Position numbers and translations under genes: made by a program. The notes below the pieces were generated by a model. The model worked only from the letters and a program-made list of their open reading frames with translations, did no database searches and had not been told where the DNA came from. This document shows, in pieces, positions 3,729 to 53,732 of a stretch of 64,000 bases of DNA. Source of the DNA: a virus; the IMG/VR virus record IMGVR_UViG_3300004184_000006, positions 1-64,000 of that record. One strand, written 5' to 3'. Positions within the stretch are counted from its first letter, which is position 1; every line of letters starts with the position of its first letter.

Positions 3729-3767
3729 AGTTTAATCAGTGCCTAGTCGGTTATTAGGTGGGTTTTT
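3729..3767 (-). promoter_or_regulatory. Late promoter, copy 1
   Basis: Reading the minus strand: AAAAACCC (3767-3760) plus AC, 23 bp, then -10 TAAACT (3734-3729). It has the same layout as the copies before the portal, DarB-like, 1279-aa, lysis, tail and capsid operons. It drives the baseplate/fibre operon. Confidence 0.75.
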
Positions 3768-3778
3768 CCTGATTTTAT

Positions 3779-3807
3779 TTGACAGAGTTAATTATCGGGA
3801 ATATGCT
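3779..3807 (+). promoter_or_regulatory. Sigma70-type promoter reading right
   Basis: TTGACA (3779-3784), 17-bp spacer, TATGCT (3802-3807). Near-consensus, divergent from the adjacent late promoter. It probably drives the secreted-protein genes at 4.0-4.9 kb and the short transcript described next. Confidence 0.65.
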
Positions 3808-3813
3808 TATCTC

Positions 3814-4020
3814 GCTTTCACCGCATTGTGGAAGTCGGGAATGCAACCCCGCAATTACAAAACGGATGCCAGCGCATCACGCGCTTTTTTTATGCCCGTC
3901 AGTTTATGATGGTCTGGCACAGGCTCACTTCGCGGTGAGGCCGCTTCTGTTTTGGCGGTAGTTGCATCCTGTGTCAGATTGTCGCCCAACGCAACACCAA
4001 GCGACAGTCTTCTTAAATCA
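3814..4020 (+). other. Structured segment resembling ash/Icd-like prophage leader
   Basis: About 210 bp between the rightward promoter and the first secreted gene. A hairpin AGCGC-ATCAC-GCGCT followed by seven T (3871-3891) is a good intrinsic terminator, so a transcript of roughly 80 nt may end there. All three frames are partly open; one reads MQPRNYKTDASASRAFFMPV up to a TGA and continues beyond it. The string AFFMPVSL reminds me of the ash/Icd-like ORFs of enterobacterial prophages and P4-like satellites, but this is recall without alignment. No convincing intact gene. Confidence 0.35.
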
Positions 4021-4034
4021 AAACAGGAACAACA

Positions 4035-4463
4035 ATGAAAAAGCTAATTTTATGTTTAGCGTTATTAACCGCTACACCATCAATCGCATTCGCCGATGAG
4101 TCAGTTGATTTTAACGCGGTATCGAATGAAATGCTGGGCGCATACAGTATGTACGAAAATGGCTCTACCGCTATGTTGAGTGTTGAAAACAAGTGCTGGA
4201 ACTCGCTACGAAGCGTTGACATGGCGAAGGCTAAAGCCTGTGTTTCGTACACGCTTGCAGGCGGCATTATTGAGGCTACTTATGCAAGATCACAGGGAAG
4301 ACAACCAACGCCAGATTACACGGGTGAGTTTACCGTACCTAGATTCACAAAAAACCTTAAAGCCGCTGGATTTTCAGCATCACAAATAGAAGAAGCAACC
4401 GATTACGTTCATGGCAACAGTAATTTAATTATTATTGGACTTGCTAACGCTGGAATGCGCTAA
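4035..4463 (+). CDS. Secreted protein of unknown function (lysogenic cargo)
   Basis: 142 residues. Begins with a clear signal peptide (MKKLILCLALLTATPSIAFA) with likely cleavage after AFA, so the mature protein is periplasmic or secreted. The mature part has two cysteines (KCWN and KACVS) that could form a disulphide. AGGAACA lies 7 bp before the ATG. It is co-oriented with the LprI-type gene 23 bp downstream and opposite to the flanking virion operons, the mark of a moron expressed in the lysogen. I do not recognise the family. Confidence 0.7.
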   Translation: MKKLILCLALLTATPSIAFADESVDFNAVSNEMLGAYSMYENGSTAMLSVENKCWNSLRSVDMAKAKACVSYTLAGGIIEATYARSQGRQPTPDYTGEFTVPRFTKNLKAAGFSASQIEEATDYVHGNSNLIIIGLANAGMR

Positions 4464-4486
4464 CCTTTAAATCAAAGAGAAAAACA

Positions 4487-4852
4487 ATGAAAAAATTAAT
4501 AGTTTTACTGGGCTTGCTTGTTGCGTTTTCGGCTAGTGCCAAGGATTGTGAAAAAGAAGCTTATGATGGCGGTATGGCAGCCGTTCGAGACTGTATTGCA
4601 TCTCAAAATGAAGATCAAGTAAATAAGGCTTATCAACAGTTATTGCTGGCTCACAAAGGAAGCGATGCAGCCATTCAAGCAGCTAAAGAAGCGCAAGACT
4701 CATGGGGAAAATTCAGGTTTTCCACTTGTGAGTATATTGGAGAAACAGTTAATAAGGACGAACAGGCTGGCTGTATTGATGACTTCAACAAAGCCCGCGT
4801 AAAGATGCTTAATCAGTATGCAAAACAAGCTAAAGAAAACAAATCAAAATAG
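4487..4852 (+). CDS. LprI-type (DUF1311) secreted protein, possible lysozyme inhibitor
   Basis: 121 residues with signal peptide MKKLIVLLGLLVAFSASA. The mature part has the DUF1311/LprI layout: early Cys (KDCEKEA), Cys after the first helix (RDCIAS), an N-x-x-Y helix (NKAYQQLL), an aromatic-Cys motif (WGKFRFSTCEYIG) and a late Cys (AGCIDD). LprI of Mycobacterium inhibits lysozyme, and many homologues have no known role. As prophage cargo it could protect the lysogen envelope; that is inference. The gene is followed by a bidirectional terminator. Confidence 0.65.
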   Translation: MKKLIVLLGLLVAFSASAKDCEKEAYDGGMAAVRDCIASQNEDQVNKAYQQLLLAHKGSDAAIQAAKEAQDSWGKFRFSTCEYIGETVNKDEQAGCIDDFNKARVKMLNQYAKQAKENKSK

Positions 4853-4942
4853 CTGATTAGCTCAAGATAGTGTAAAATTATTTTTCAGTATGAAAAACGG
4901 AACTCAACACCGTAAAAGTTGAAGCACGAGTGAACCTGACAT

Positions 4943-4979
4943 AAAAAACCCGCAAGTCGAAAGGCTTAGCGGGTTTTTT
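4943..4979. terminator. Bidirectional intrinsic terminator
   Basis: AAAAAACCCGC ... GCGGGTTTTTT with a loop of about 15 nt. It separates the rightward cargo genes from the end of the leftward portal/tape-measure operon. Confidence 0.85.
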
Positions 4980-5010
4980 ATTGCCTATCAATTTGTGACT
5001 AGATGGCTAT

Positions 5011-7569: not shown

Positions 7570-7574
7570 CTACC

Positions 7575-7775: not shown

Positions 7776-8508
7776 CCATAAATGTATCTAGCTGAACAAA
7801 ACTCATTGTTATCTCTGCCATTGCTATTTCGCTACGCGACAATCCGATAGTAATGTTTCCAGCACGAAACAGCCCTTTTGACTGATAGCCGCCCTTGTTG
7901 GTTTCACTGGAACTAAAAGCGTGAGTTACCTTTATTTTAATTGCGTAGTCATTAGGCAATCCAACCGTGCCATCACTTGCAGAACACGCAACCGCATGGG
8001 CTTCAAACCAGCGTTTTATTGAGCCGTTCACGTCATCCAGCGTGGTAATTGACATTTCAACTGGATCGCCAGAATTAACCAGATCAACGTGGGCCGAACC
8101 GATTTGCTTCTTTTCTCCAGTTATTGTAAATGGCGAGAAATCCACGTTATAGGCATACATATTGAAGATGTCAAAATCACCTTTTAATGCGCTTGACACT
8201 TCAAGTAGCCACAGGTTTTTATAGGCAAAATCAATACCAGCGTGTTGTCGGTATCGGTTAAGGGCCTCGGCTGGCGATAATCCGCCAAGCATTGCCGTTG
8301 GGGTGTTGAAGTGGTTATTGCCAAACCTTCCACCGCCACGCGCATTTAAAAGACGCTGCCCCGCGCCTATCAGATTCCCATCCTGAATATCCTGAAAAAC
8401 ACTTGTGCCTGTACTGATTGCCTGTCTAGCCACCGATGGTATTGCGCTGGAAATTGACTGACCGAATCCGCCGCCTATTTTTTTCTGTACATCACTGAAT
8501 AGTGACAC
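7765..8508 (-). CDS. Tail tube/baseplate-like structural protein
   Basis: 247 residues. Gly/Ala-rich N-terminus, then a beta-rich C-terminal domain ending in IAMAEITMSFVQLDTFMGGS, reminiscent of tail tube-fold proteins (T4 gp19, gp48/gp54 group). It lies between a dCTP deaminase and the tape measure-like gene. A baseplate or tube-cap role is inferred from position and fold impression only. Confidence 0.5.
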   Translation of the reverse strand: MSLFSDVQKKIGGGFGQSISSAIPSVARQAISTGTSVFQDIQDGNLIGAGQRLLNARGGGRFGNNHFNTPTAMLGGLSPAEALNRYRQHAGIDFAYKNLWLLEVSSALKGDFDIFNMYAYNVDFSPFTITGEKKQIGSAHVDLVNSGDPVEMSITTLDDVNGSIKRWFEAHAVACSASDGTVGLPNDYAIKIKVTHAFSSSETNKGGYQSKGLFRAGNITIGLSRSEIAMAEITMSFVQLDTFMGGS

Positions 8509-9134
8509 TACTTAACTCCCTTTGATGGTTGCGCTTTATCCTGACCGTTATACTGCCCATGAACTGCGTAACTCTTATTGAGCGGGACAGGGTCATGCTT
8601 AAAAAACTTTACCTGACCTATTTTCATTCCCTCAGTCAGTATTAATTTATGAAACTGAGTGTTATTTTTTAATTCAAGCGTTACTTTTCCACTAAAACAT
8701 GGGTCTATCCATCCAGCTAATTCATGCCCCAAAAAATTACGCCCTAAACTTGATTTAAGCGAGTATTCTGCACTCAACCAGCTTGGCATGTTGAGTGTTT
8801 CATGGGTACTGGCAAGTAGCACGGTATCGGGCATCATATAGCCGCTTGAATCCAATTCAAACGGTTCAGTGAGCTTGATATTTTCACCATTAACTAAATC
8901 CACTTTATCCATGCCGCCGCTTAAATCTTCAACACAGATAAACTTGTCCAGCGTTACGTCTATGCTTGTGCCGTTAATGTTTTTTCGTGGAAATTCAGTG
9001 TGGTACGGATAGCCTTGTTTTGTAACTGTAATAACCCCTAAGTCAACCAATACGCACAAATCGTTATAACTCAACAATCCGTTTGGAATAAACCAGCGTG
9101 GGTATTTTCGTTTTAACCAATTAAGAAGCGACAT
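8508..9134 (-). CDS. dcd: dCTP deaminase family protein
   Basis: 208 residues, the size of Dcd. It converts dCTP to dUTP for thymidylate supply; some members also hydrolyse dUTP. Visible signature: NGTSIDVTLD (54-63), then SLKSSLGRNFLGHELAGWID (125-144) with the Ser and Arg of the active site, E154 in VTLELKN as the expected catalytic acid, GMKIGQVKFF (169-178) and YNGQDKAQPSKG near the C-terminus. It lies inside a virion operon between portal-side and tail genes, so it is probably expressed late. Deaminase versus dUTPase specificity cannot be settled by eye. Confidence 0.82.
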   Translation of the reverse strand: MSLLNWLKRKYPRWFIPNGLLSYNDLCVLVDLGVITVTKQGYPYHTEFPRKNINGTSIDVTLDKFICVEDLSGGMDKVDLVNGENIKLTEPFELDSSGYMMPDTVLLASTHETLNMPSWLSAEYSLKSSLGRNFLGHELAGWIDPCFSGKVTLELKNNTQFHKLILTEGMKIGQVKFFKHDPVPLNKSYAVHGQYNGQDKAQPSKGVK

Positions 9135-9138
9135 TTAG

Positions 9139-18200: not shown

Positions 18201-21200
18201 GTATTTTTAATCGAATTGCGTAACATCGCTACGTTATCCAAGCCCTTGAATACTGATATTACCCGCTCGATACCATCAATACTAACGTCTTCCTCATCTT
18301 CACGGGTACAAACGATTTCAAGGAAACTATCCGCCCCAGCCGCGCCCATCATGAGGTTATTAACCTTATCCTGACCGACTGACAAAGAAAGCATTGAGTA
18401 AACTTCTAACGGGCTATTAGTTATCGGTGTCGCAGTGAGCAACAGCACGCCGTCATTAAGCGGTGTTTTTCCGCGAATAACCCACAGCTTAGCCTGTGCA
18501 TCAATAGCCCGTTTAGCGGCTTTTGGCATGGACAAATATTTAGCTTCTTTGGTGTTGGTAGCGGTTGACGCGTTTTTAAGTAAATGCGCCTCGTCAATAA
18601 CAATTGAGTCAATGCCTAGGTCTTCCAAGTTTGGCACATTCGACTTTTTATCATTCAAAACCGTAGTGATTTGCGTTAAAAAATACTTAACCTTTTCATC
18701 GGTCTTTTTATCGCCTGTCAGTTGAATACTGTCATCGTTACGGCGCAAGTAGTCGTAATATCCCTCAACACTTTCAACCTTAAGCCTAATCATCTGGAAC
18801 GCTTCATAGGTCATGAATATCTTGCTATGATTGTTTTCCATAATGCGGCTTAAATCAACAGCGTATTCGCTGGATTTAACAGACTCATTGCCGTCTTTAT
18901 CAGCACGCAAGCCGATAAACAGCGTGTTATCCATTGATTCATACGCCTTGCCCGCCTCTTTTTTCCAGTTGGATAAGGTGCTGCTTGGCACTACGAACAG
19001 GGTTTTGCTTTTAACGCCCATGTTGTGAGCATATTGGACGGCGGCTAATGCAGTGAAAGTGTTGTGAGTGACAACAAAGTCATCGGTAACATAAAGATGG
19101 TCGGGTGCATCAACTGAGATACATTGAGCAGGTTTATTGCCGATTGATTTAACTTTTTTGATGTAACGGATAGGCGAATACTTAGTTTTTGGCAAAACTT
19201 TATCGCGCTTTCTTTGGCAGTAGAACGGGTTAATATCGCCGCTTAATTTCAGTGAAACAGTGTAGTGCAAGGCACAATAAACACGCTTGCCATCAATATC
19301 AACGTAGGACGGTAATTTTTCTGTTATGGTCGCATTGCCGCCCAAACTTTGAGCGATAAATACCACGCCATCGGCTAACTGTTTTGATGAGCTTGAAAAT
19401 TGTACCGTGATACCGTCTTTTGAAACGTAGCCGTCTGTGTCCATTAATCCGCGTAGCAGTTCAATTCTATCGTCTACACTTGATAGCAGGTAATCAGTTG
19501 GAATGAATTTAGTTAGCGAGCTTGCACCATCTAAGCCATAGTCATTTAATGCTTGTCTTACGCTGTTTTTAACGCAACTAGATAACTTTGCTATTCCGTA
19601 ACGGGTGCAATGCGTTTCTTTGTTGTTTTTATTGGTGTTTAGTGAAACATCATCAGGTAATAACCCGCTTAACTTTTCAGCAATATCCAAATCATCATTG
19701 CAAATTGTTAGTGAGATAGATTTATGCGTTATATTACCATCACCAAGTATAACGCCTAGCGCGTACGGGTGAATTAGCAATTCACCGCGACTAGAGAACT
19801 CAACGGGTTCAACCATAGGAATTGAATAATTAACCGTGCCATTATGCGGCAAGAAAAGGGATTGCCTAATCTCATTAAGGCTCTTAACTTGGTAGCCCAT
19901 ACGCCCATCTTTTGGGAACGGTATCAAGCCTTTTTTAACCTTGCCTATGTAGTTTCTATCAACTTGCGTTCTAACTGCCCACAAGTGTTCATCGCAACAT
20001 TCACTTTTTGCGCCATCATTAAAAGTGACTTCAAAAATCTCTTTTTCGCCTTGCGGATAAACGCCTGTAACTTTCGTAGGTTTGCCATTAGATCCGATAA
20101 CGTAATCACCAACCTTAATGTCACCCATTAATACCCATCCATTAGGCGTTAGAATCTTTGCATCTAACGGATTTGCTTTACCTAGTCCGACATCAAACCC
20201 ATTGACACCCTTAAATTCCCGCGACATTTGACGCACGAATGAGCATTGATAACCATGTAGCTTAAGTGCTGGATTCATGCCTGCAATGTTTAATTCAGCT
20301 TCATCATCAATAGGTCTAAATTGTAGCTTGCTTGCATCGGTAGATTGCTGATTTAACCGCGCTTGAATATCAGGACGCGCCTTAACCCATGAATCAAATT
20401 GCGTATTTGCAGTAACTGCCATTTTGCGCAATTCTCGCAGGGCTTCAATGTCACTTAAGTTATCGAACTTTGTACCGCCTGTACTTAGAGTACGCTTAAC
20501 AAGGTAATCACCGAACCGCTTATTAAGCTTGTCCTGATCGCTTAACTTGCTACCGTTAATTTCAATATCAACAACTTTTTGCCCTTTGTCATTAACAACA
20601 ATCATTGCATCGGGGTGTACGAACTGCTTAACAAACTCCAGTTTTTCTTCTGCGGTCACATAGGGACTAAACAAGGTAAAGTTCATTTGCGTTACATCTA
20701 TGGTGTCAACGCGCTTTAAGGCCTCTGCACGTTGCCATGACAGCTTACCGATTAACTCATCATTGCCCTGTGCTTTTTCAATATCAGCATCTAACTTGGT
20801 TAAAAAATCAGCCAAGTTACCGACAAAATAATCATCTGCTTTGATGATGCTTTTCCCGTCACCCGATACACAGTAATCTGTACTTTCAAACTCGTTAAAA
20901 TCATCACCTAACGCGACCTTGGCATCATCAAGGCTAATCCATTTTGACTTAGCCTTGTACATCATGCCTTCAAAAGATTTATCAGCGTCAGTGGCCTTTA
21001 ATTCAATTGATGACACCTCGCCACGCCAATACTTGGTAAAGCCAGTTTTCATATCGTACTGGTTGCGCACCGATTTAAGCGCATCCTTGACCGAACTGCC
21101 AAGGCTTGATTTTGGGCTTTTTGCCAGCTTAGCGATAACCTGAATTTCAGTGGATAGCGCGGGATACTCTTCAAGGTAATTGAAGCCGCGTGTACCAACA

Positions 21201-22720: not shown

Positions 22721-22721
22721 A

Positions 22722-22748
22722 ACTAGCCTCGTGTGTAATTGAGGCTAG
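22722..22748. repeat. Inverted repeat at the DarB-like gene start
   Basis: CTAGCCTC and GAGGCTAG with a 10-bp loop. The distal arm touches the -10 and the proximal arm contains the GAGG that would serve as Shine-Dalgarno for the DarB-like gene. It could be an operator over the start site or, if transcription starts early enough, a hairpin hiding the ribosome site. Confidence 0.7.
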
Positions 22749-22785
22749 TTTATAGGGGTGTTAGCGGGTGTTTTATTGGGTTTTT
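22747..22785 (-). promoter_or_regulatory. Late promoter, copy 3
   Basis: Minus strand: AAAAACCC (22785-22778) plus AA, 23 bp, -10 TAAACT (22752-22747), also readable as extended TATAAACT. It lies inside the 3' end of the TSCPD gene. Drives the DarB-like operon. Confidence 0.78.
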
Positions 22786-23201
22786 ACAGTGTTGATATGC
22801 TTCTCAATTACAATCCCTATGTGAGCTACCACGCTAGGACATAGACCACCACCTTTCGGTAAAAAATACCCGCCTTTAGGTGAGAAAATTGACCGCATGG
22901 ATTGAACTATAAAAGAGCTGTCTCCATCGCTTTGCCATATCGCGCTTATCAAGCGGGTAACGCACATGACCCACTCATGTGACTCCAAGTGCGAACAGTT
23001 GATAAATATCTCATAGGGCTTTCCATTGAGATTATTAATGGTTATGTACATAGCACACTCTAAACCAGTTGGCTTAATTTTGTAGGTGTAGCCCTGTAGC
23101 ACATCTTCGCGGTCTGGCTTTGGGACGGCAATAACGACCACTTCTTTTTTATCGCCTGCCACCGCATAGCCTGTAATTTTTTTAGTTATTGCCTTAGTCA
23201 T
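22773..23201 (-). CDS. TSCPD-domain protein (ribonucleotide reductase-associated type)
   Basis: 142 residues. MYITINNLNGKPYEIFIN, SHLESHEWVMCVTRLISAIW, SFIVQSMRSIFSPKGGY and VVAHIGIVIEKHI match the TSCPD domain found at the C-terminus of class II ribonucleotide reductases (NrdJ/NrdJb) and as stand-alone phage proteins. The usual Cys-rich tail seems absent. No reductase gene is visible here, so it may act with the host enzyme; that is inference. Small Cys-rich genes precede it. Confidence 0.72.
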   Translation of the reverse strand: MTKAITKKITGYAVAGDKKEVVVIAVPKPDREDVLQGYTYKIKPTGLECAMYITINNLNGKPYEIFINCSHLESHEWVMCVTRLISAIWQSDGDSSFIVQSMRSIFSPKGGYFLPKGGGLCPSVVAHIGIVIEKHINTVKTQ

Positions 23202-32922: not shown

Positions 32923-32952
32923 GATGTACTATCGCCTTAATATTGTGACGAT

Positions 32953-32991
32953 ATTTTAGGCATTATGAGAGGGGTGGAATGATGGGTTTTT
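32953..32991 (-). promoter_or_regulatory. Late promoter, copy 4
   Basis: Minus strand: AAAAACCC (32991-32984) plus AT, 23 bp, -10 TAAAAT (32958-32953). Drives the 1279-aa gene and the tail genes downstream. Shares ATTCCACC after the box with copy 5. Confidence 0.8.
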
Positions 32992-33007
32992 CTTTTTCAA
33001 CAGACAC

Positions 33008-35332: not shown

Positions 35333-35361
35333 GCTAATACCGATAGTTTTTTGTTAGCGGT

Positions 35362-35400
35362 ATTTTATGGTGACTTTTGTAGGTGGAATGGTGGGTTTTT
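35362..35400 (-). promoter_or_regulatory. Late promoter, copy 5
   Basis: Minus strand: AAAAACCC (35400-35393) plus AC, 23 bp, -10 TAAAAT (35367-35362). Drives endolysin, holin, lipoprotein, spike and DarA-like genes. Confidence 0.8.
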
Positions 35401-35405
35401 CCTGA

Positions 35406-38510: not shown

Positions 38511-38542
38511 AGGATTCCGTTACTAAGGTTTGGATTAGCAAC

Positions 38543-38581
38543 AGTTTAATGAATGGATACATGGATAAATGGCGGGTTTTT
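38543..38581 (-). promoter_or_regulatory. Late promoter, copy 6
   Basis: Minus strand: AAAAACCC (38581-38574) plus GC, 23 bp, -10 TAAACT (38548-38543). Drives the tail operon to 35.4 kb. Confidence 0.8.
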
Positions 38582-38596
38582 CTTTTTTGGCGGGCA

Positions 38597-38637: not shown

Positions 38638-39327
38638 CTATGCAACTGCTTCCAGCTTGGCTACGCGATAGCGTTTTTCAAAATACACCTGTCCCTTCCC
38701 TGTGATAAGTGTTTTAAAGCTTGGGTGCGATACGCCGTTATTATCAACGTGAGGCGTTTGCTCAATGGAAACCAGTAGCCCCCTGTCAATTGCGCTTTGA
38801 TACGGGCGGTTGTTTGCCATTAAGAATTTATCATTGCGTAGCAGCATGAACAGCCTATTCTGGCCTGTACCGATAACCTTGGCGAAATCACCAACTGATA
38901 CCTTGCCATCGGTATTGCGCACCGCTTCGGCAAACTCAACTTTTGGCTTGTCTGATTCTATTTTTAATTGCAGGGATTGTTTTTCGGTTTCTGATTGCAC
39001 TAATGCAGTAAGTGCTTCAAGGTAGCTTGTGGGTAGTTTTGGCTGTACGGCCTCAAGCTCTAGCCATCTATCAACTATAGCCGCCCTATATTTGACTGAA
39101 TAACCGCTAACCAGAATATCGCATTCTCTGCGCGGAAGGTTAAAACATGGTAAATCCTTGTTTTGCTTTGATTTATAAGAGCCGCGAAAAACCGCGTGTC
39201 CTATTTCAAGCTCATCAAGCATTTTGCGAATATCGACAAGAACCTTGTCATGGTCTTTTTCTGTCAGCTTAGCAATCTCTAAAGATGACATGGTTTGTGT
39301 GGCCGTGGTGCTTAGTAAATTTTGCAT
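38638..39327 (-). CDS. Rha-type antirepressor/regulator with KilA-C-like C-terminus
   Basis: 229 residues. Residues about 10-95 match the Rha domain (MSSLEIAKLTEKDHDKVLVD, CFNLPRRECDILVSGYSVKYR, RAAIVDRWLELE). Residues about 115-225 match the phage antirepressor KilAC domain (VEFAEAVRNTDGKVSVGDFAKV, ...RLFMLLRN, KTLITGKGQVYFEKRY). Rha proteins interfere with lysogeny or host regulation. It stands alone between two late operons with its own upstream region and terminator, so it is a moron likely controlled separately. Confidence 0.85.
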   Translation of the reverse strand: MQNLLSTTATQTMSSLEIAKLTEKDHDKVLVDIRKMLDELEIGHAVFRGSYKSKQNKDLPCFNLPRRECDILVSGYSVKYRAAIVDRWLELEAVQPKLPTSYLEALTALVQSETEKQSLQLKIESDKPKVEFAEAVRNTDGKVSVGDFAKVIGTGQNRLFMLLRNDKFLMANNRPYQSAIDRGLLVSIEQTPHVDNNGVSHPSFKTLITGKGQVYFEKRYRVAKLEAVA

Positions 39328-40940: not shown

Positions 40941-42797
40941 TTACACCAATGTTTGAGTTAGGTAAATTTGTCTGGTCGTGCCGACAAAGCAGGGGTAAAT
41001 GTTTATGACAACCGCATCAACCAGTACGCCATGCGGTGCAACTTCATAGGCAAAGTAGTCAGTCGCAAATGACGGATTAGTTTCGCTTGGTTCAGTCACC
41101 CAGCCAGCGGCATATAAGTCAGCTCGCATTTGATGCAGGAACTCACCCATTTTTTTAACAACGGTATTGATGTCTTTTTGCAGAATGTCTTTACCGTAAC
41201 GGGTAATTCTTTCCTGTACATCAACCGACATATCAATGACTGAGAATAGCTTGCGCTTGCTGTTAGATACCGCCGCGCCTGTTAATGAGTCAAAGAATAC
41301 ATAACGGAATCCGCCTGTGTAAGTCTCACCAATGACAGGGTTGATATGCGCCTTTGCCAAGTCGTTTTTATCAAAGTTTGTAACCTGAACAAGTTGCGTG
41401 ATGTTTTGGTTGTACAAAGGATAATCGCGCCCTGCAATCGGGTTTTTCTTATTTTCACAGTAGCCACGCGCGTTTTTCATCGCGTTTCTACGACATGCGT
41501 AAGCAATCAGCAACGTGGCCCTACCAATGATGGTCTTGCCATTAATACCTGTTGGATCGGTCAACTTTAAAGGCGACCAATAAGCAGGCACTAAATCGGA
41601 TGATTCGTAGTTGCCACCGATGTTCAATTGCTCATAAAACGCAATAGCGGCATCTTTTGTTAAGCTACCTGAAATATCAATCGCCAGAATACGGTTTGTG
41701 TCATACGCCAACTGGACCAATTGAGCAATCAAAGCGGGGGCTTGTGAGCCGCCAGAACTGATATAGCCGTAGTTCAGGTTAGTGTTGTGCAACAAGACAC
41801 GCGCTGCCGAATAATCGGCTGTCGTGTAGCCTGTACCGCCCTCAGTGAAGCAAACCAGCACGCCAGATTTTGACCATGCAGGTTGACCGCTGACACCATA
41901 CCCGTAAGCTGGAGAGCCAACAGGAATACTGGTAATGGTTGCACCAACACTAACCTCTACCGCGTCAGTTTGCTGACTAACAACATCAGGAAGGTAAATG
42001 GAGTTTTGATAATCATCAAGTGCCGCTGGATCAAGTGAGCCAGTGAAGTCATACAGCGGGTTATTGTCTTTGTCTTTAATAACGAGACGAATAACACCGT
42101 TGGCCGCGCTTACACCGCCTACCCGTTTATCTTCGGCATGAATTTCACACTGAATGCCGTCGTTAAAGCACTCAAGATGCTTAATGGCTAAAAGATAAGG
42201 CGTTACTGGAATAGTTGTTACTGCCGACCATGCAATAGGGTTAGCAATACTAATAGTAGGGGCAACTGTATAGCCTGTGCCGCCCGCTGAAATAGTCACG
42301 CCAGTAATAACGCCAGCCGTAGCGGTAATAGTACCCACTGCGCCCGTGCCAACACCTGTAAAGGTCAGTGTTTGACCTGTCACATAGCCCGTACCACCAT
42401 TAGTGATGGTAACGGATGACTGAACAACGCCAGCAAGCACGGTTGGCGTTAGAACAGCTCCAACACCCATAGTCGCTACAGCATACTTAACGACCGCCGA
42501 ACTGGTTACTAACCGCTGAACGACTGCCTCATACGCACCTTTGTTCAAGGCCTCTATGATATGCACCCACGCTTCATTTAGCGCGGATAATCGCATAGTT
42601 TCGCCTTTGCCTAATTTCTTGTAGGCATTAGACCGATTAACAGCAAACGGTTTGTCTATGCGACCGCGTGTCAATCGACACATGATCGCAAAGTTTTGGT
42701 CATAATTATCAACCGTTGGCGTTTCTGAGCGATCTTGGAGCGGGTTGTACTGGACACCCGACTCCGCGCCTAATTGTCTAACAAATGATACTGTCAT
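40941..42797 (-). CDS. Tail sheath protein
   Basis: 618 residues. C-terminal two thirds are sheath-like (LLIAYACRRNAMKNARGYCE, YRYVFFDSLTG-type strand, FSVIDMSVDVQERITRYGKD, MRADLYAAGWVTEPSE). An insert at about 125-185 has two GGTGY units (ITNGGTGYVTGQTLTFTGVG and VTISAGGTGYTVAPTISI), a Gly-rich beta motif common in virion surface domains, probably exposed on the sheath. It contracts to drive the tube. It lies between capsid and tail genes. Confidence 0.72.
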   Translation of the reverse strand: MTVSFVRQLGAESGVQYNPLQDRSETPTVDNYDQNFAIMCRLTRGRIDKPFAVNRSNAYKKLGKGETMRLSALNEAWVHIIEALNKGAYEAVVQRLVTSSAVVKYAVATMGVGAVLTPTVLAGVVQSSVTITNGGTGYVTGQTLTFTGVGTGAVGTITATAGVITGVTISAGGTGYTVAPTISIANPIAWSAVTTIPVTPYLLAIKHLECFNDGIQCEIHAEDKRVGGVSAANGVIRLVIKDKDNNPLYDFTGSLDPAALDDYQNSIYLPDVVSQQTDAVEVSVGATITSIPVGSPAYGYGVSGQPAWSKSGVLVCFTEGGTGYTTADYSAARVLLHNTNLNYGYISSGGSQAPALIAQLVQLAYDTNRILAIDISGSLTKDAAIAFYEQLNIGGNYESSDLVPAYWSPLKLTDPTGINGKTIIGRATLLIAYACRRNAMKNARGYCENKKNPIAGRDYPLYNQNITQLVQVTNFDKNDLAKAHINPVIGETYTGGFRYVFFDSLTGAAVSNSKRKLFSVIDMSVDVQERITRYGKDILQKDINTVVKKMGEFLHQMRADLYAAGWVTEPSETNPSFATDYFAYEVAPHGVLVDAVVINIYPCFVGTTRQIYLTQTLV

Positions 42798-43202: not shown

Positions 43203-44954
43203 TTACTTCATACCTGTCAGCGTCAATTTAGCGAAAGCTAACGCGCTTTGTTTGTGTGGGTTTACACGCATGAAGTCTTTGCGGAAATAATGAACACCGC
43301 TGTCAGCATTCTTTGTTTTCCCGACTTCAATCATGATTGGCGAAACTGACTGACCAGCGACCAAACCTGAGCGAGCAACATCTTGAGATTGACCGATTAA
43401 CAGAACTTCTGCACTGGTAACTCCGCTGCTGGTAGTTTCTGGTTGATCTGGGTCATAGTAGACTTCAAACTGACCATCAAGAGTACCTAAGCGATAGATA
43501 GATGCACGCGCTCTGATACCAGACGGAACAAAACGACCACCCATAACCAGATTATTTAGCCATGCTGCAACGGTTTTGTTTACATACAAGTGAGTTACGC
43601 CCGTGACGTTAGTTCTTACCGCCATATCTTGAGACGCTACCGCCAAAGGAATGGAAATGTCCTGCATGTTTTGTCCACGAGTTTGTGCGCCCGTGTCTAA
43701 CCACAAGCCCATATCCCATGTGTACGGGTAGCTTGCTGCAATACGTCTTGCATACTGCAATGCAGATTTATGATCTTCGTTACCAAGCTGTAACTGCATT
43801 GAACCCATCAGGTTAGACATTGAGTCCAGGCCAACTTCTCGCGCTAACTGTGCGCTTGCATCGATACCAACGGTAACATTACCGCGTGTTACATTAGCTA
43901 GAAACGTGTAATCAGTAGCGATTAAATCAATTTCAGAAATCAATTCAGGCTGTCTGTTGAAGTCAATTTGACCTTCTACCAAAACAGCTACGCCCACATC
44001 AAGATTAGGTGTTGAAGTAAGCGAATACACACCTGTGTCGTTGTTGATCGTACCGCCGATTTGATAAGTAGTGCTTGCCAGCGTTACCGAACCACTGATA
44101 GTCGATGATGTGTCGGTTTTGCTAATTTCTTTAGCGACTGGAATACCGCCAACATAAACAACCGCCTGACCTTTAACCAGCTTTGCCGCAGTCGCGCCAT
44201 TGGCTACTGTTTCGCATGTTTCGCTGGTTAATTGCACGCTGGTAATTTGACCAGCATGAGTACCTACGCCTAACGCTACAGTGTTTGCCGCTGTTGAAAT
44301 TCTGTTGCTTTTGAAAAAGCGTTTACCAGAATGTACGCCATCCATGTTTTCATTGGCTGCATAACCACCGTTTTTTAGGTGCGATTGATGCTCAACGATG
44401 ATTAACTTACCTTCACCCGATTGAATATCAGTAGGAACCTGCATAATCCAAGGAATAGCGCATGTAAATGTGTTTTGCAATGAAACGATTGCGCGATTAA
44501 TCTGCAATGAGCCGTTGTCTGGCGATACGTTGGTCGCGCTGTCCAAGAAGCTGTCAGTAAATCCCGTTGCAATTTGAACCTTGCGCTGACCTTCGTGTGT
44601 AAACTGATATGCAACATCGACCGCTTGAGCGATTAAGTCAGGAGAAGGCTCTTGACCGTGTGCATCTTCATAACGAGTGATTGAGTCCAGCAACGCCGTA
44701 GTTAAGCGCAACCGATCACCAGGATCCAGTTCTTCGTAAAGTTTTGATAGCTTTTCAGGCATGACGATAGAGCCGTGACCAGCAATAGACTCATTGATTG
44801 CTGTGTTCGCGGTCTCTACGCTGTCTAAAAAGTCGCCTGTGTTGTTTACCTCGCCTAATTTTGAGGTATCACGCAAAGAAGAATAAAAGGCAACCGCCCC
44901 AGTCTTCATGCTTTCAAGATTAGTTTTTCGCGGGGCTTTAATATGTTTACCCAT
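43203..44954 (-). CDS. Major capsid protein
   Basis: 583 residues. N-terminal region helical (possible scaffold-like delta domain, 1-150), then PWIMQVPTDIQSGEGKLIIV, an inserted beta domain (about 240-330) with short Thr/Ser-rich strands, and a HK97-like end with RREVGL-type helix (ASAQLAREVGLDSMSNLMGS), YEVYYDP-type beta hairpin (DGQFEVYYDPDQ) and a terminal YFRKDFMRVNPHKQSAL. The gp23-like size suits a large myovirus head. First gene after a late promoter, with a GCCC-ACAAA-GGGC hairpin near the mRNA 5' end and AGGT before the ATG. Confidence 0.8.
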   Translation of the reverse strand: MGKHIKAPRKTNLESMKTGAVAFYSSLRDTSKLGEVNNTGDFLDSVETANTAINESIAGHGSIVMPEKLSKLYEELDPGDRLRLTTALLDSITRYEDAHGQEPSPDLIAQAVDVAYQFTHEGQRKVQIATGFTDSFLDSATNVSPDNGSLQINRAIVSLQNTFTCAIPWIMQVPTDIQSGEGKLIIVEHQSHLKNGGYAANENMDGVHSGKRFFKSNRISTAANTVALGVGTHAGQITSVQLTSETCETVANGATAAKLVKGQAVVYVGGIPVAKEISKTDTSSTISGSVTLASTTYQIGGTINNDTGVYSLTSTPNLDVGVAVLVEGQIDFNRQPELISEIDLIATDYTFLANVTRGNVTVGIDASAQLAREVGLDSMSNLMGSMQLQLGNEDHKSALQYARRIAASYPYTWDMGLWLDTGAQTRGQNMQDISIPLAVASQDMAVRTNVTGVTHLYVNKTVAAWLNNLVMGGRFVPSGIRARASIYRLGTLDGQFEVYYDPDQPETTSSGVTSAEVLLIGQSQDVARSGLVAGQSVSPIMIEVGKTKNADSGVHYFRKDFMRVNPHKQSALAFAKLTLTGMK

Positions 44955-45004
44955 TTTATTTACCTGTGTGTGTGAAAATTTGAGGCCCTTTGTGGGCTAG
45001 GTAA

Positions 45005-45043
45005 ATTATGAGCGGGTGGTATACGGGCAAAATGCGGGTTTTT
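45005..45043 (-). promoter_or_regulatory. Late promoter, copy 7
   Basis: Minus strand: AAAAACCC (45043-45036) plus GC, 23 bp, -10 CATAAT (45010-45005). Drives capsid through the 39.4-kb gene. Confidence 0.8.
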
Positions 45044-45059
45044 CTTTTTCGATGGGCAT

Positions 45060-45559: not shown

Positions 45560-47068
45560 TTATGCGACATCGGCAAACAAGTCACCGACCTTTGTCATTA
45601 ATGACTCGACCTGTGATCCTTTCCCGCTTACTTCGCTTTGTATATATGCAACGCCCTCAAGAAAAAGTTGTGCTATCGCATCCCAACTATCAGGACTAGA
45701 TAGTCCCTGCCTTCTCATTTCTTCTTTACTTTCTATTCTGTACCTAGCCCTTTCATCAAAATGATACGGGATGCGTGACGCTTGGTCTAAAATCTCTTTG
45801 CGACACGGCACATCTGCGGCAATGCCTAAACGCCCCTCTTTAGCCGCCCGTGAAGCGCAAACAATAGCTTGACTTCTTAAGTTAAAAAAACGCTCTCTAT
45901 TGTTATTCTGAAAACACGGCTTACCCCAATAAACCCGCTTAATATCTGGTAGCCCAAGTGTCTCTAATTGCTGACAAACAGCAACCCCCATGCCGCCAGC
46001 ATCAACGATAGTGGTGCAATTTTCTAATTCAGCGGTTGCCCTAAAAATATCTCCCGTTAAATCCTGAATGTTTCGCGTGTTTGACCATATCGGCACTGAA
46101 ATAATCTGTACACGCCGTGCATCCGAGCCTGTATCACCATAACCAGACACTAACGCGACAATCGCTACCGATTTATCACGGTATTCACCCGCCCCAACGT
46201 CCACCGACATAATCACGCCGTAAGCATCCGATTCACGCATGACGTTACGCCCAAAACACGCCTCAATCTCTTTTCTGCCTAACAGGTTGCCATCTGTTTT
46301 ATCGGGGAACTGCCCTAATACCTTAATGGTGTACTCAATTTCAGTATATTCGAGCTTCTTTTCACGGCAAAAATCCAAAGATACCCGTGGGGATTCCTCT
46401 GAACTCATCACAAAGGTATTCCATGCCCCACCCTCTTTTTTACTTAATGAGTGATGGGTATCGTAAAAATACCCGCTTGATTTAGTTGGCTGACTGGTTA
46501 ATAACATACGGTTTCGTTTATCAGTCAACGCGCCCGTTAGCACCTTATAATGCTCATCTGGAATACCCGATGCTTCATCTGCAATAAGTAAATACCAATC
46601 CCTGTGTTGCCCTGCTAAATTCTCACTGCTACCACGCGGCGCGGTCTTAGCAAAGATGAACCATGTTGCCTTGAATCCAATAACATAAACTCGTTCTGCT
46701 TCAATAACAAAATACTGACATACCCACGCATGGGGAGTTTTTTCAACGTGGTTCTTAATGTCGTTTATTTCTTTCCAAGCAATATTGCGCACCTGTTCTA
46801 TTTTAGGTGCTGTTAGCATGGTATTTGAACCGTGATAGCACAATAAATGCCATAACGCCGCAACCGCTATTAATCTGGATTTACCTATACCATGCCCTGA
46901 ACTAACCGAAGTACGAGAGCCAACAGGGACTACAGAATTATTCAAATCATATTGTTGCGGCGTAGGTATTGTTCCGCATACTTCAATTGAAAAGGCGTTT
47001 AGGTTATTAGCATACCTTTTTACAAATTCAATATAACGAATATCACTAAGGATTGTTTTTACTGCCAT
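45560..47068 (-). CDS. terL: Terminase large subunit
   Basis: 502 residues. ATPase: Walker A GHGIGKS (58-64), Walker B YLLIADEAS (159-167) with D164-E165, and coupling LLTSQPT (189-195). Nuclease: MSVDVGAG with D290 and a later TTIVDAGGMG. It cuts and pumps DNA into the prohead. It follows the small subunit by 2 bp. Confidence 0.9.
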   Translation of the reverse strand: MAVKTILSDIRYIEFVKRYANNLNAFSIEVCGTIPTPQQYDLNNSVVPVGSRTSVSSGHGIGKSRLIAVAALWHLLCYHGSNTMLTAPKIEQVRNIAWKEINDIKNHVEKTPHAWVCQYFVIEAERVYVIGFKATWFIFAKTAPRGSSENLAGQHRDWYLLIADEASGIPDEHYKVLTGALTDKRNRMLLTSQPTKSSGYFYDTHHSLSKKEGGAWNTFVMSSEESPRVSLDFCREKKLEYTEIEYTIKVLGQFPDKTDGNLLGRKEIEACFGRNVMRESDAYGVIMSVDVGAGEYRDKSVAIVALVSGYGDTGSDARRVQIISVPIWSNTRNIQDLTGDIFRATAELENCTTIVDAGGMGVAVCQQLETLGLPDIKRVYWGKPCFQNNNRERFFNLRSQAIVCASRAAKEGRLGIAADVPCRKEILDQASRIPYHFDERARYRIESKEEMRRQGLSSPDSWDAIAQLFLEGVAYIQSEVSGKGSQVESLMTKVGDLFADVA

Positions 47069-47070
47069 AT

Positions 47071-47670
47071 TTAATTAATCCATTCACCACTTTTTAATTG
47101 CGCCAATCGCTCAGGTAATTCATCGCGTTGTTGTTGTATTTTTTCAAGCCCTTCTTGTAGTATTAAATCCAATTCATCTAGCGAAACAACCATATCAACA
47201 TCTCCCGATACCTCAACAGTTTGCGCTGGTCTTCCAAAGCCGCGATCCAGTAATTCTTTACCTGCTTGTATTCTTTCGCTTATGCGTGGAGGCTCATCTG
47301 ATTCTACTGTGCAATTTAAAACTGACACGAAAAAATCTATAACATCATCACCATATTGCGCGGCATACTCTTTCATTGAACGCGTTAGCTTGTTGGGAGA
47401 ACCAGCAGGTCTACCCATACTCACAGGTACTATTTTTTTTGGATTTCCGCTAATTGACTCCTTATTATCCCCTGTGCGTTCGTGTGCGTTTTTCGCTGGT
47501 TCTGTGCGTTTTTTTTCGCTTTTCTTTACCCATCCTTCTTTAGTTGAACGGCGAGATACGGTAGTATGGGAAACGCCTAAAAACCTTCCTATCGATACAT
47601 AATCTTCCTTGCTAGACCCCTCCCATTTTTCCCTTGCTTTTGCCCACTCATCGCTTGATAATTTTGCCAT
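47071..47670 (-). CDS. terS: Terminase small subunit
   Basis: 199 residues. N-terminal helix-turn-helix (SIGRFLGVSHTTVSRRSTKEGW, about 26-48, split by family habit), a Lys-rich linker, RPAGSPNKLTRSMKEYAAQYG and an acidic C-terminal helix. Fits a DNA-recognising packaging subunit directly before terL. Confidence 0.8.
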   Translation of the reverse strand: MAKLSSDEWAKAREKWEGSSKEDYVSIGRFLGVSHTTVSRRSTKEGWVKKSEKKRTEPAKNAHERTGDNKESISGNPKKIVPVSMGRPAGSPNKLTRSMKEYAAQYGDDVIDFFVSVLNCTVESDEPPRISERIQAGKELLDRGFGRPAQTVEVSGDVDMVVSLDELDLILQEGLEKIQQQRDELPERLAQLKSGEWIN

Positions 47671-48347: not shown

Positions 48348-48870
48348 GCTTCCTCCTTTCAAGGATGCTCATATCAATCTGCTTGGCTTTTAATGGCGCA
48401 CGGCTTTTTGTTTCCCTGCTATGAAACCTGTAAAACATTGGGTTAGTCTCCCAGTCAACACGAGCAGTTGAAATAAGGTTGATAGGGGTTGATTCTGTGG
48501 CCTGCCTAGCATAAAGCAACGCAGATTCTAAGTAATGAAAGCAACCGCTTTGAGCGAATAACAGAATATGTCTTGCTGACTTATATGCACTGGTATCTTT
48601 GCTTTGAAACGCATCGTTATACCTGCCCATAATTTCATCAATTAGGCTTGCCTTGGCGGTTTTTTGTAAGTGATATTTTGAGACATCCTTAATAGCTCTC
48701 TCAATGCTGTAGACAGCCTCTTTATAGTCCTGATTAGCTGATTTAAGTCTGCCATCAATTCCGCCGCACGTTAGCTTCTTAAATGCTTCCGCCAAACAAA
48801 ATGGCAGGCTGAATACATTGCTGACACCAAACGGATCGTACTCGCCAAGTTTAGAATAAGGACTGCTCAT
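48340..48870 (-). CDS. Unknown protein upstream of the endonuclease
   Basis: 176 residues, largely helical, ending in Lys/Arg (ILERRKRG). Coupled by a 1-bp overlap to the HTH gene. Not recognised. Confidence 0.55.
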   Translation of the reverse strand: MSSPYSKLGEYDPFGVSNVFSLPFCLAEAFKKLTCGGIDGRLKSANQDYKEAVYSIERAIKDVSKYHLQKTAKASLIDEIMGRYNDAFQSKDTSAYKSARHILLFAQSGCFHYLESALLYARQATESTPINLISTARVDWETNPMFYRFHSRETKSRAPLKAKQIDMSILERRKRG

Positions 48871-49766
48871 TAATTACCCCCATCTATTTTAAAAATATCA
48901 ACATTAACGCCTGTTGATTTCTTTGCAACATCACGAAAACAATTAAATCGTCTTAATTGAGAATTAATTGATCCTGACTCCATCGCAAAATCATCAACAA
49001 CCCTTACTAGAGATGCTCCAGATTTAATATCATTGTCAAAATCTGGATTTATATCCCTTACCTTATCCAATGATGATTTTATAACACTGGCATATTTAAT
49101 TAATTCATTTGCAACAGTGCCAATAGTTATTATTTTACCATGAATAACCCGCATGACATTCATTTGCTCAATAGTATTATGCTCTAATTGGTCATATATC
49201 CATGCGCCAATCTGTCTATCGTTTTTAATATCAATATCTGTTTCAAAGTCATCTGATAATCCAAGCAAATAATCGGCTGCTACTTTGTATATGGTTGCCG
49301 CGCCTCTGATAATCTTAATGTCTGGAATAAGTCCGTCGGTACAATGCTCAAACTGACAGAGTTTTTTTTGGCTAATTCCCAGTAATTTAGCCGCCTTACC
49401 CTGGCTCATACTGCATAACTCCTCGCGGGCTTTTTTCATTCTATAACCAATAATTACCAGCGAATCCTTACTTACAGTGTCGCCATCCTTGCCCTTTTTT
49501 AATTCAAGAATCTTTGCTTTTCGCTTTGCTAAATCCAGTGTTGGAAGGAACGCCTCATAATCGCTTGCAGAGCATCTTATTAAAAATCCCGATATTTCTG
49601 AGATGGTTATCTCACTGTTAGATATACCCACTTTTTTATCTTCTTTTTTAAGATATTTTGATTTTCTATCGGCTCTAAATTTATCAACAGCATACCCAAT
49701 CTTTCCGCTGCTGCTTTCAATAAAATAACCTTGTGATTCTACAATTGTAATGCTTGACTCTGCCAT
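48870..49766 (-). CDS. HTH (XRE-type) domain protein
   Basis: 298 residues. Residues about 108-170 form a Cro/CI-type helix-turn-helix (YRMKKAREELCSMSQGKAAK, LLGISQKKLCQFE). The N-terminal 100 residues and the helical C-terminus are unassigned. Likely a DNA-binding regulator or effector in the pre-packaging operon; target unknown. Confidence 0.62.
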   Translation of the reverse strand: MAESSITIVESQGYFIESSSGKIGYAVDKFRADRKSKYLKKEDKKVGISNSEITISEISGFLIRCSASDYEAFLPTLDLAKRKAKILELKKGKDGDTVSKDSLVIIGYRMKKAREELCSMSQGKAAKLLGISQKKLCQFEHCTDGLIPDIKIIRGAATIYKVAADYLLGLSDDFETDIDIKNDRQIGAWIYDQLEHNTIEQMNVMRVIHGKIITIGTVANELIKYASVIKSSLDKVRDINPDFDNDIKSGASLVRVVDDFAMESGSINSQLRRFNCFRDVAKKSTGVNVDIFKIDGGN

Positions 49767-49770
49767 TATT

Positions 49771-52530: not shown

Positions 52531-52532
52531 AA

Positions 52533-52709
52533 TTACCCCCAAACCGCATTAGGATTAACGCGGCATTTTGATTTGTGTGTTGCGCTAAACCTTGTGTCAT
52601 TGCATCTAGGGCAAATTCTCATCCCGACCGATACATGACCGACGCCAATAGCCTCTCTTTTCGCTATTGCCATGTGGTTTCCCATTTGTGCAACCCTTTT
52701 TTTAGTCAT
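52533..52709 (-). CDS. Small two-CxxC-like protein
   Basis: 58 residues from the ATG at 52709; CPRCN and KCRVN give three Cys. The start lies next to the upstream stop and its stop precedes the O-like start by 2 bp. Unknown. Confidence 0.5.
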   Translation of the reverse strand: MTKKRVAQMGNHMAIAKREAIGVGHVSVGMRICPRCNDTRFSATHKSKCRVNPNAVWG

Positions 52710-52952
52710 TTAGTCACCCACTACAAAGGAATACTTGCCATTAAATTTCTTGCACTTACGCGGGGCTTCGTCACTCAATGGGCGACCACCAAGCTCATAG
52801 TTAAAAAACGCCGAATTGATGACGATTGACTCTCTTTGGGCTAGTTTTTCATCCCATACGGAACAGGTCCCGTTATCGCCAAAATCGTCATAATGCCCAT
52901 TGCTGGAAAAGCTCTGGCACTGCCCGCAGGTTACTTCTGCCAATTCGCTCAT
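52710..52952 (-). CDS. Small Cys-rich protein
   Basis: 80 residues. CGQCQSF, TCSVW and RKCKKF provide four Cys for a zinc site. ATGA overlap with upstream gene. Typical small phage early protein of unknown role. Confidence 0.6.
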   Translation of the reverse strand: MSELAEVTCGQCQSFSSNGHYDDFGDNGTCSVWDEKLAQRESIVINSAFFNYELGGRPLSDEAPRKCKKFNGKYSFVVGD

Positions 52953-53089
52953 ACCGCACCACCAAAAACATCATCCAGCGTGGTGTTAGCTCCTTTTTCA
53001 ATTTCGTCTGCCAAGTATAAAATCGGTACGATGACGGCGAAAATGAACAGCGATAGCGACCAAATGCCTAACTTCATTAATGGATTCAT
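52949..53089 (-). CDS. Small single-span membrane protein
   Basis: 46 residues, ATG at 53089 overlapping the upstream stop and stop overlapping the next ATG. One membrane helix (LGIWSLSLFIFAVIVPILYL) and a short acidic tail. Unknown. Confidence 0.55.
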   Translation of the reverse strand: MNPLMKLGIWSLSLFIFAVIVPILYLADEIEKGANTTLDDVFGGAV

Positions 53090-53280
53090 ATTGCCGCCTT
53101 ATTTCTTGCCAATTTGCGCAGACGTTTTTCTTCTGCCTTGGCGTTAAGTTCTTTGTTTTTTGTTTTTGATGGTCTTGGCGGCTGTCTTTTATAAAAGACG
53201 GTCCCGCGCATGATTGGCGTAGCAAAGACTGACCTCATTAATGCCATGTGCAGCCCTATTGCTTTTCTGTCGATTTTCAT
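53086..53280 (-). CDS. Small basic protein
   Basis: 64 residues, Lys/Arg-rich C-terminus (KTKNKELNAKAEEKRLRKLA). GAGGTG precedes the ATG. Preferred over the overlapping frame 52998-53225. Unknown. Confidence 0.5.
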   Translation of the reverse strand: MKIDRKAIGLHMALMRSVFATPIMRGTVFYKRQPPRPSKTKNKELNAKAEEKRLRKLARNKAAI

Positions 53281-53420
53281 TTCAACACCTCAGTTTTCAG
53301 TAATTTCATAACAGCGATTAACGCCCTCTTCTTTGCTTTTTCGATAAGTAGCCGTGCGATTACTACTTGAATTTCGATTCCTATCGGGAGGTACGGCATT
53401 CTTCTATTAGTCAAGTGCAT
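53277..53420 (-). CDS. Small basic helical protein
   Basis: 47 residues, ATG at 53420 with AAGGA upstream and a stop overlapping the next ATG. Helical Ile/Val/Lys-rich. Unknown. Confidence 0.5.
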   Translation of the reverse strand: MHLTNRRMPYLPIGIEIQVVIARLLIEKAKKRALIAVMKLLKTEVLK

Positions 53421-53422
53421 GG

Positions 53423-53662
53423 TTAATCCTTGATTCCAAGTGCGATTAATACCGCCATTATGCGTTCTGAGTTTTCACCACGCTCCAGGTCGAGTTCACG
53501 ATATAAACGCCCTAGGTGAGCCTCTACTGTGTTTTCACTGATATTCAAATCACGCGCGATACCTTTGTTTGATTTGCCCATACAAACAGCAACCCAAACA
53601 TCTATAACGCGCGGCGTAAGTCGCTTGTATGACTTCAAAATATCTTCTTCGATTACTGCCAT
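53423..53662 (-). CDS. LuxR-type HTH regulator, candidate late activator
   Basis: 79 residues, essentially only a LuxR/GerE helix-turn-helix: RLTPRVIDVWVAVCMGKSNK, GIARDLNISENTVEAHLGRL and a C-terminal helix. No receiver or sensor domain. Directly upstream lies a degenerate copy of the late promoter box, so it may control itself. As the only free-standing positive-type regulator in the early operon it is my candidate for switching on the late promoters. Confidence 0.75.
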   Translation of the reverse strand: MAVIEEDILKSYKRLTPRVIDVWVAVCMGKSNKGIARDLNISENTVEAHLGRLYRELDLERGENSERIMAVLIALGIKD

Positions 53663-53693
53663 TGTCTTGCTCCTCTTTGGGGTTTCCCGTTAA

Positions 53694-53732
53694 TGAATAT
53701 TGCGTAACGGTTAAGTGGAATTGTTGGTTTTT
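53694..53732 (-). promoter_or_regulatory. Degenerate late-type promoter, copy 8
   Basis: Minus strand: AAAAACCA (53732-53725) plus AC, 23 bp, then TATTCA (53699-53694). Box near-identical, -10 poor. Lies before the LuxR-type gene. Confidence 0.4.

What the first reader, a model, noticed from the sequence alone, without database searches (positions are those of the whole stretch)
3729..53732. Eight-copy late promoter with fixed AAAAACCC-NN-N23-(-10) layout
Seven operon starts (3.7, 11.2, 22.8, 33.0, 35.4, 38.6 and 45.0 kb) carry AAAAACCC plus two bases, then exactly 23 bp, then TAAACT, TAAAAT or CATAAT. An eighth weak copy is at 53.7 kb. The constant spacing places the box at about -45 to -36, where an activator would replace the -35. 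The copies lie in front of different genes, so they are not duplicates. The motif is not one I know from P2 Ogr, Mu C or T4 MotA systems.
Basis: seen in the sequence. Interest (0 to 1): 0.85.

Follow-up and report, generated by a model that had tools for sequence, protein, structure and literature searches.

The report
Late-gene switch of P1-like phages
Seven operons of this P1-like prophage start with the same spaced promoter motif, which recurs in about a hundred related phages together with one DNA-binding protein gene that P1 itself lacks, so it looks like an undescribed on-switch for the genes that build the virus particle.

Summary
AAAAACCC-N25-(T/C)A(A/T)A(A/C)T occurs seven times, all on the minus strand in front of late operons (expected about 0.02). 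The eighth copy, at 53.7 kb, scores below in-gene matches and is rejected.

The window is a P1-like myovirus prophage (72,992-bp virus record). The motif is one local version of a box shared by about 100 relatives in Beta- and Gammaproteobacteria: cGGAAAA(A/C)nnCC at about -47 to -36, no -35 element, and a -10 at a fixed offset of 36 (sometimes 35). In sheath-gene loci the counts at offsets 36 and 35 are 207 and 103, against a mean of 22 elsewhere. P1 has a different late box (AAGTGACTT at -22) and the activator Lpa; these phages lack Lpa. They share an XRE-type helix-turn-helix protein (window 48870-49766) near the terminase genes, where P1 has lpa. It is the only recognisably DNA-binding gene found in all seven relatives compared and missing from P1.

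Two extra signs support real promoters: 27 have an ATG exactly 6-7 nt after the -10 (leaderless mRNAs), and in the window five of six leaders pair with the bases directly after the -10, as in T4 gene e.

Verdict: a new late regulon with a strong candidate activator, unproven at the bench.

The parts
3729..3769 (-). Late promoter 1 (GGAAAAACCC box, -10 TAAACT) before the baseplate gene 3428-3721. The ATG lies 7 nt after the -10, so the predicted mRNA is leaderless
   Evidence: same layout in Rb1 and Ideonella
11148..11188 (-). Late promoter 2 (GGAAAAACCC, CATAAT) before the portal gene 9545-11116
22747..22785 (-). Late promoter 3 (AAAAACCC, TAAACT) before the DarB-like gene 15209-22720
32953..32993 (-). 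Late promoter 4 (AGAAAAACCC, TAAAAT) before the internal-head-like gene 29083-32922; terminator-like hairpin just upstream (33037-33008)
35362..35402 (-). Late promoter 5 (GGAAAAACCC, TAAAAT) before the endolysin gene 34736-35332
38543..38583 (-). Late promoter 6 (AGAAAAACCC, TAAACT) before the PmgB-like/tail tube operon (37737-38510 onward)
45005..45045 (-). Late promoter 7 (AGAAAAACCC, CATAAT) before the capsid-sheath operon (43203-44954, 40941-42797)
   Evidence: orthologous promoter found in about 80 loci
48870..49766 (-). Candidate late activator, 298 aa: XRE-type helix-turn-helix followed by a long helical hairpin, near the terminase genes (position of lpa in P1)
49263..49451 (-). Helix-turn-helix domain of the candidate activator (residues 106-168)
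45560..47670 (-). Terminase genes (large 45560-47068; small-subunit-like 47071-47670) downstream of the candidate activator
22721..22746 (-). Leader inverted repeat AGCCTC...GAGGCT: 5' arm starts at the first base after the -10, 3' arm covers the likely ribosome-binding site
   Evidence: p 0.006
32923..32952 (-). Leader inverted repeat ATCGTC...GGCGAT
   Evidence: p 0.02
35333..35361 (-). Leader inverted repeat ACCG...CGGT
   Evidence: p 0.046
38511..38542 (-). Leader inverted repeat GTTGCTAA...TTAGTAAC
   Evidence: p 0.006
44955..45004 (-). Leader inverted repeat TTACCT...AGGTAA enclosing GCCC...GGGC
   Evidence: p 0.016
53694..53732 (-).

Best explanation
The seven sites are the late promoters of a P1-like temperate myovirus. 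They have a -10 but no -35 and are switched on by a phage-made activator that binds the A/C-rich box at about -47 to -36 and helps the host sigma-70 RNA polymerase. The activator is most likely the XRE-type helix-turn-helix protein encoded at 48870-49766 near the terminase genes, in the place where P1 keeps its unrelated activator Lpa. Shown: the motif, its fixed spacing, its conservation in front of orthologous late operons in many phages, the lack of Lpa and of P1-type boxes in the window, and the presence of the helix-turn-helix gene in nearly all relatives searched. Inferred: that these are active promoters, that they need an activator, and that this protein is it.
For: Motif: seven sites against about 0.02 expected, all in front of late operons. 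Conservation: in 58 non-redundant capsid-gene upstream regions the best -10 starts 35 or 36 nt from the first G of GGAAAA in 41, against at most 11 in 500 shuffles. In all sheath loci GGAAAA has a -10 at offset 36 in 207 and at 35 in 103 cases, against a mean of 22 at other offsets; control hexamers show no peak. In the Ideonella prophage 9 of 9 CGGAAAA sites have it; P1 shows no peak. Relatives use drifted boxes at the same or nearly the same distance (GGAAAGT, GCAAAC, AGGAATAT..GAAAA). No -35: observed mean -1.52 against -0.39 in shuffles. Independent sign of start sites: ATG exactly 6 or 7 nt after the -10 in 27 promoters, none at 4, 5, 8 or 9. Activator: the helix-turn-helix gene is found in 26 of 29 further records, the three misses being fragments of 45, 20 and 17 kb; it is in all box-bearing phages first compared except a 30-kb fragment, and absent from P1; it is the only regulator-like gene shared by all seven relatives and absent from P1. 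Lpa is found only in P1. The predicted fold is an XRE domain like SinR, P22 c2 and C.AhdI, plus a long helical hairpin.
Against: No transcript data and no binding data. The link between box and protein is co-occurrence in a related set of phages, so ancestry alone could give it. Five other genes are also in all seven relatives and not in P1; two are annotated or weakly matched as tail/baseplate, the others have no known function. XRE proteins are often repressors. The A-tract at -45 could in part be an UP element contacted by the RNA polymerase alpha subunit. The regulator in the window carries an extra 100-residue N-terminus of unknown role with low model confidence.
Confidence: 0.74

Rival explanations
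1. The late promoters are real and activator-dependent, but the activator is another phage protein (one of the other shared genes, or one too diverged to detect), and the helix-turn-helix protein does something else, such as regulating packaging or lysogeny.
For: Five other genes are shared by all seven relatives and absent from P1; three have no known function. P1 Lpa has no recognisable relation to this family.
Against: The others lie in structural gene blocks or have no recognisable DNA-binding domain. The helix-turn-helix gene sits near terminase, in the lpa position, in the window, Rb1, Ideonella and the Acinetobacter plasmid.
Confidence: 0.15
2. The promoters need no phage activator: the A-tract at -45 is an UP element bound by the RNA polymerase alpha subunit, which with the -10 is enough for the host polymerase.
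For: AAAA at -45 to -42 falls on the proximal UP-element position, and a second A-rich stretch lies upstream at columns -5 to -3. UP-element position is from general knowledge.
Against: The GG before and the CC after the A-tract are conserved, and the box differs by phage lineage (GGAAAA, GGAAAGT, GCAAAC, AGGAATAT), which fits a co-evolving phage protein better than a fixed host subunit. Constitutive late genes would be harmful to a lysogen.
Confidence: 0.06
3. The box is the -35 of an alternative sigma factor, for example an ECF type whose -35 begins GGAAC.
For: GGAAAA resembles GGAAC (general knowledge).
Against: The gap between box and -10 is 29 bp, far too long for a -35 to -10 spacer, and the -10 is sigma-70-like.
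Confidence: 0.02
4. The box is an operator at which the helix-turn-helix protein represses late genes in the lysogen.
For: XRE proteins such as P22 c2 and SinR, among the nearest folds, are repressors.
Against: The site lies upstream of the polymerase core contacts in a promoter with no -35; repression would usually overlap -35 to +1. The gene lies near terminase, not in the cI immunity region at 54 kb.
Confidence: 0.05

Closest known systems
Phage P1 Lpa late promoters (11 promoters, 9-bp box at -22 plus -10; host SspA also needed)
   Same: Same kind of phage and late operon set (portal, lysis, DarA/DarB, tube-PmgB); many scattered late promoters lacking a -35; activator gene near the terminase genes
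   Different: Different box (GGAAAA.. or AAAAACCC at -47 to -36, against AAGTGACTT at -22) and a different regulator gene; no Lpa in any of 33 relatives
Lambda CII-activated promoters
   Same: A phage helix-turn-helix activator at -35 with direct-repeat contacts about one turn apart; here CC repeats after 11 bp
   Different: TTGC-N6-TTGC absent from the sites; this is a late regulon of dispersed operons, not an establishment switch
P2 Ogr / P4 Delta late promoters
   Same: Box upstream of the -35 region of late promoters, activated by a phage protein
   Different: TGT-N12-ACA with a -10 not found; the candidate activator is XRE-type, not zinc-finger
T4 gene e leader (PMC3014915)
   Same: The late promoter lies in the 5' arm of a hairpin that hides the start site in read-through RNA
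   Different: In T4 it is described for genes such as e, soc, 49 and I-TevI; here it looks repeated across several late operons of one phage and is unproven

Membership tests
P1 Lpa late regulon | 9-bp AAGTGACTT-like box at -22, 4 bp before the -10 | tested here: not met
   P1 boxes read directly; in the window only 2-mismatch hits, 12 against 14 expected by chance
P1 Lpa late regulon | Lpa homologue (PF25716) | tested here: not met
   Match only in P1 among 34 records
P1 Lpa late regulon | Dispersed late operons for portal, lysis, head and tail genes of a P1-type myovirus | tested here: met
   PHROG matches and shared core genes
P1 Lpa late regulon | Activator gene next to pacA-pacB terminase | tested here: inconclusive
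   Met by position only: a helix-turn-helix gene, not an Lpa homologue, sits near terminase in the window, Rb1, Ideonella and Acinetobacter
P1 Lpa late regulon | Dependence on host SspA | not testable with these tools
   Needs an experiment
P2 Ogr / Delta late promoters | TGT-N12-ACA centred near -55 | tested here: not met
   No match at one fixed distance from a -10
Lambda CII promoters | TTGC-N6-TTGC straddling -35 | tested here: not met
   5 chance-level matches, none at the seven sites
T4 MotA middle promoters | MotA box at -30 with AsiA appropriation | not tested
   Box here is at -47 to -36; no search for MotA or AsiA was made
Mu C late promoters | Mor/C-type activator and its dyad site | not tested
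   No Mor/C family appeared among PHROG matches of the genes scanned, but the site was not searched
XRE helix-turn-helix proteins | XRE fold | tested here: met
   HTH_3/HTH_31 matches for homologues; confident model and matches to SinR, P22 c2, C.AhdI
Sigma-70 late promoters without -35 | Good -10, no -35 | tested here: met

The most novel reading that the evidence does not exclude
A previously undescribed family of phage late activators (XRE domain plus helical hairpin) controls late genes in the wider P1-like group, and several of its promoters carry a built-in fail-safe: the bases just downstream of the -10 pair with the ribosome-binding region, so any read-through RNA from outside folds up and is silent, while RNA started at the late promoter lacks most of that arm and is translated. 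In other operons the RNA starts at the ATG itself.
Probability: 0.35. Interest if true: 0.76.

Novelty: new variant of a known kind. Interest (0 to 1): 0.62.

Why it matters
P1's late switch is the textbook case for this virion type, yet the relatives examined here appear to use another switch at the same place in the genome. That makes the replacement of one late activator by an unrelated one directly testable, gives annotators a motif to call late operons in many prophages and phage-plasmids of Pseudomonas, Burkholderia, Nitrosomonas, Acinetobacter and others, and flags leaderless virion-gene mRNAs as an unusual, checkable feature.

Tried and rejected
The eighth copy was rejected. An alternative sigma factor was rejected because the 29-bp gap is too long. 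P1-type, CII-type and Ogr-type boxes were searched and are not there. A first pan-genome comparison dropped real genes in GC-rich phages because of overlapping false frames; it was redone with all frames. A first spacing scan used a shifted box and was redone. Of two own-record pattern scans the first used a wrong gap and the second found the seven sites. A search for regulator loci with the widest alignment failed for lack of conserved stretches; a narrower one worked. In the pooled family the leader-hairpin signal is only about twofold (26 against 13 in shuffles for arms starting -4 to +4 from the -10), so that idea is kept as a lead, not a finding. No paper describing this motif or regulon was found, but the held library is open-access only.

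Full report
What the window is. The window is most of a 72,992-bp virus record. Its genes match P1-type families: sheath, baseplate, portal, PmgG- and PmgB-like head genes, Hdf- and DarB-like anti-restriction genes, an anti-repressor, a large terminase, and at the right end cI, RecT, single-strand-binding protein and integrase. It is an integrase-bearing relative of P1.

The observation. Seven minus-strand sites read AAAAACCC-N25-TAAACT/TAAAAT/CATAAT with no change in spacing. With one mismatch allowed nothing else appears; the exact pattern is expected 0.017 times. The -10 ends 7 to 50 nt before the start codon of a late gene: baseplate, portal, DarB, a large internal-head-like protein, endolysin, PmgB-like/tube operon and capsid-sheath operon. 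CC is also invariant 11 bp after the first CC. The eighth copy fails.

It is family-wide. The tail sheath protein led to relatives in phage Rb1, plasmids of Ideonella, Burkholderia and Pseudomonas, and about 115 further loci. Upstream of the capsid operon nearly all carry cGGAAAA(A/C)nnCC. In 58 non-redundant cases the best -10 starts at offset 35 (13) or 36 (28) from the first G; shuffles never exceed 11 for two neighbouring offsets. Over all sheath loci the counts are 103 and 207 against a mean of 22, and four control hexamers (GGAAAG, CCTTTT, AAAAGG, GGTTTT) show no peak. In complete phages the peak is at 36, including 9 of 9 sites in Ideonella and 7 of 12 GGAAAGT sites in a Pseudomonas plasmid; Burkholderia splits between 36 and 37; P1 has none. 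The window's sites are at 36 in these coordinates. Some lineages have their own box: GCAAAC in P. putida and P. atacamensis plasmids, and AGGAATAT..GAAAA with the -10 at about 34-35 in an Acinetobacter plasmid. The spacing is kept while the letters drift.

Promoter character. There is no -35: the best match at usual spacing averages -1.52 against -0.39 in shuffles. An independent sign of the start point came from start codons: in 27 promoters an ATG opening a frame of 60 or more codons begins exactly 6 (18) or 7 (9) nt after the -10, with none at 4, 5, 8 or 9. Those mRNAs would be leaderless. Of twenty checked, most lead to the orthologue of the window's 29083-32922 protein, and one to the baseplate gene; in the window itself the baseplate gene at 3721 is so arranged.

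The activator. P1 drives its late promoters with Lpa from an AAGTGACTT box at -22 (PMC10695390; PMC8201110). Lpa is found in P1 only, not in 33 relatives, and its box is not in the window above chance. Instead window ORF 48870-49766 is homologous to helix-turn-helix proteins near terminase in Rb1 and Ideonella (E 2e-23 and 6e-25). A profile finds it in Burkholderia, three Pseudomonas plasmids and a further contig but not in P1, then in 26 of 29 more records, the misses being fragments; the Acinetobacter plasmid has one next to terminase. Of the window genes tested, six are in all seven relatives and absent from P1; this is the only one with a regulator-type domain. The 204-residue core folds with confidence (mean pLDDT 87) into an XRE domain and a long helical hairpin; nearest solved folds are SinR, ImmR, P22 c2 and the controller proteins C.BclI and C.AhdI, all through the XRE domain only. 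Lineages with a different box also have a different recognition helix, but that could be common descent.

Leader hairpins. In the window five of six non-leaderless leaders have a stem whose 5' arm begins within three bases after the -10 and whose 3' arm ends 4-8 nt before the start codon; the summed stem score is 81 against 46 (sd 5.5, maximum 67 of 500 shuffles). In the Acinetobacter plasmid the sum is 134 against 76 (maximum 110), with arms of 8-11 bp next to the ATG in three leaders. With transcription starting about 7 nt after the -10, the 5' arm is largely missing from late RNA but present in read-through RNA. This is the arrangement reported for T4 gene e (PMC3014915). Family-wide the enrichment is only about twofold. 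I treat it as a lead.

What is shown and what is inferred. Shown: motif, spacing, conservation, lack of Lpa and of its box, and the near-constant presence of the helix-turn-helix gene. Inferred: activity, activator need, and the identity of the activator.

Noticed in passing
window 3902-3989 (+): C4 antisense RNA (Rfam RF01695, E 1.7e-7), the P1/P4 immunity RNA, just outside the first late promoter; an anti-repressor-like gene lies at 38638-39327, far from it.
   Followed up: no
L014-L127 loci (list) and window 3721: Predicted leaderless mRNAs: ATG 6-7 nt after the -10 in 27 late promoters, mostly of the large internal-head-like gene and, in the window, the baseplate gene.
   Followed up: partly
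window leaders 22721-22746, 32923-32952, 35333-35361, 38511-38542, 44955-45004; Acinetobacter plasmid NZ_CP032280 upstream of 14660, 16085, 69623: Inverted repeats starting right after the -10 and ending at the ribosome-binding region, like T4 gene e.
   Followed up: partly
L197 (5291-6007 and 9974-10543), L198 (6821-7447 and 9968-10552): Two copies of the helix-turn-helix protein family in one phage contig.
   Followed up: no
L007 1-1775 (Ideonella NZ_CP088082, about 565 kb): Diversity-generating retroelement (two avd genes and a reverse transcriptase) annotated beside the tail genes of the P1-like prophage.
   Followed up: no
window 8508-9134 (-): dCTP deaminase-like gene between tube and portal genes, not found in the eight compared phages.
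   Followed up: no
L012 upstream of 17241 and L013 upstream of 17187: In P. putida-type plasmids the capsid promoter box overlaps a hairpin followed by a T run (GCAAACCCCCCGAAATTCGGGGTTTTTTT), so a terminator and a late promoter seem to share sequence.
   Followed up: no
window 48870-49766, residues 1-100: The window protein and the one in L052 carry a roughly 100-residue N-terminal extension missing from most relatives; its model is low-confidence.
   Followed up: no
window 22773-23201 (-): Ribonucleotide-reductase-like fragment whose 3' end overlaps the DarB late promoter box.
   Followed up: no
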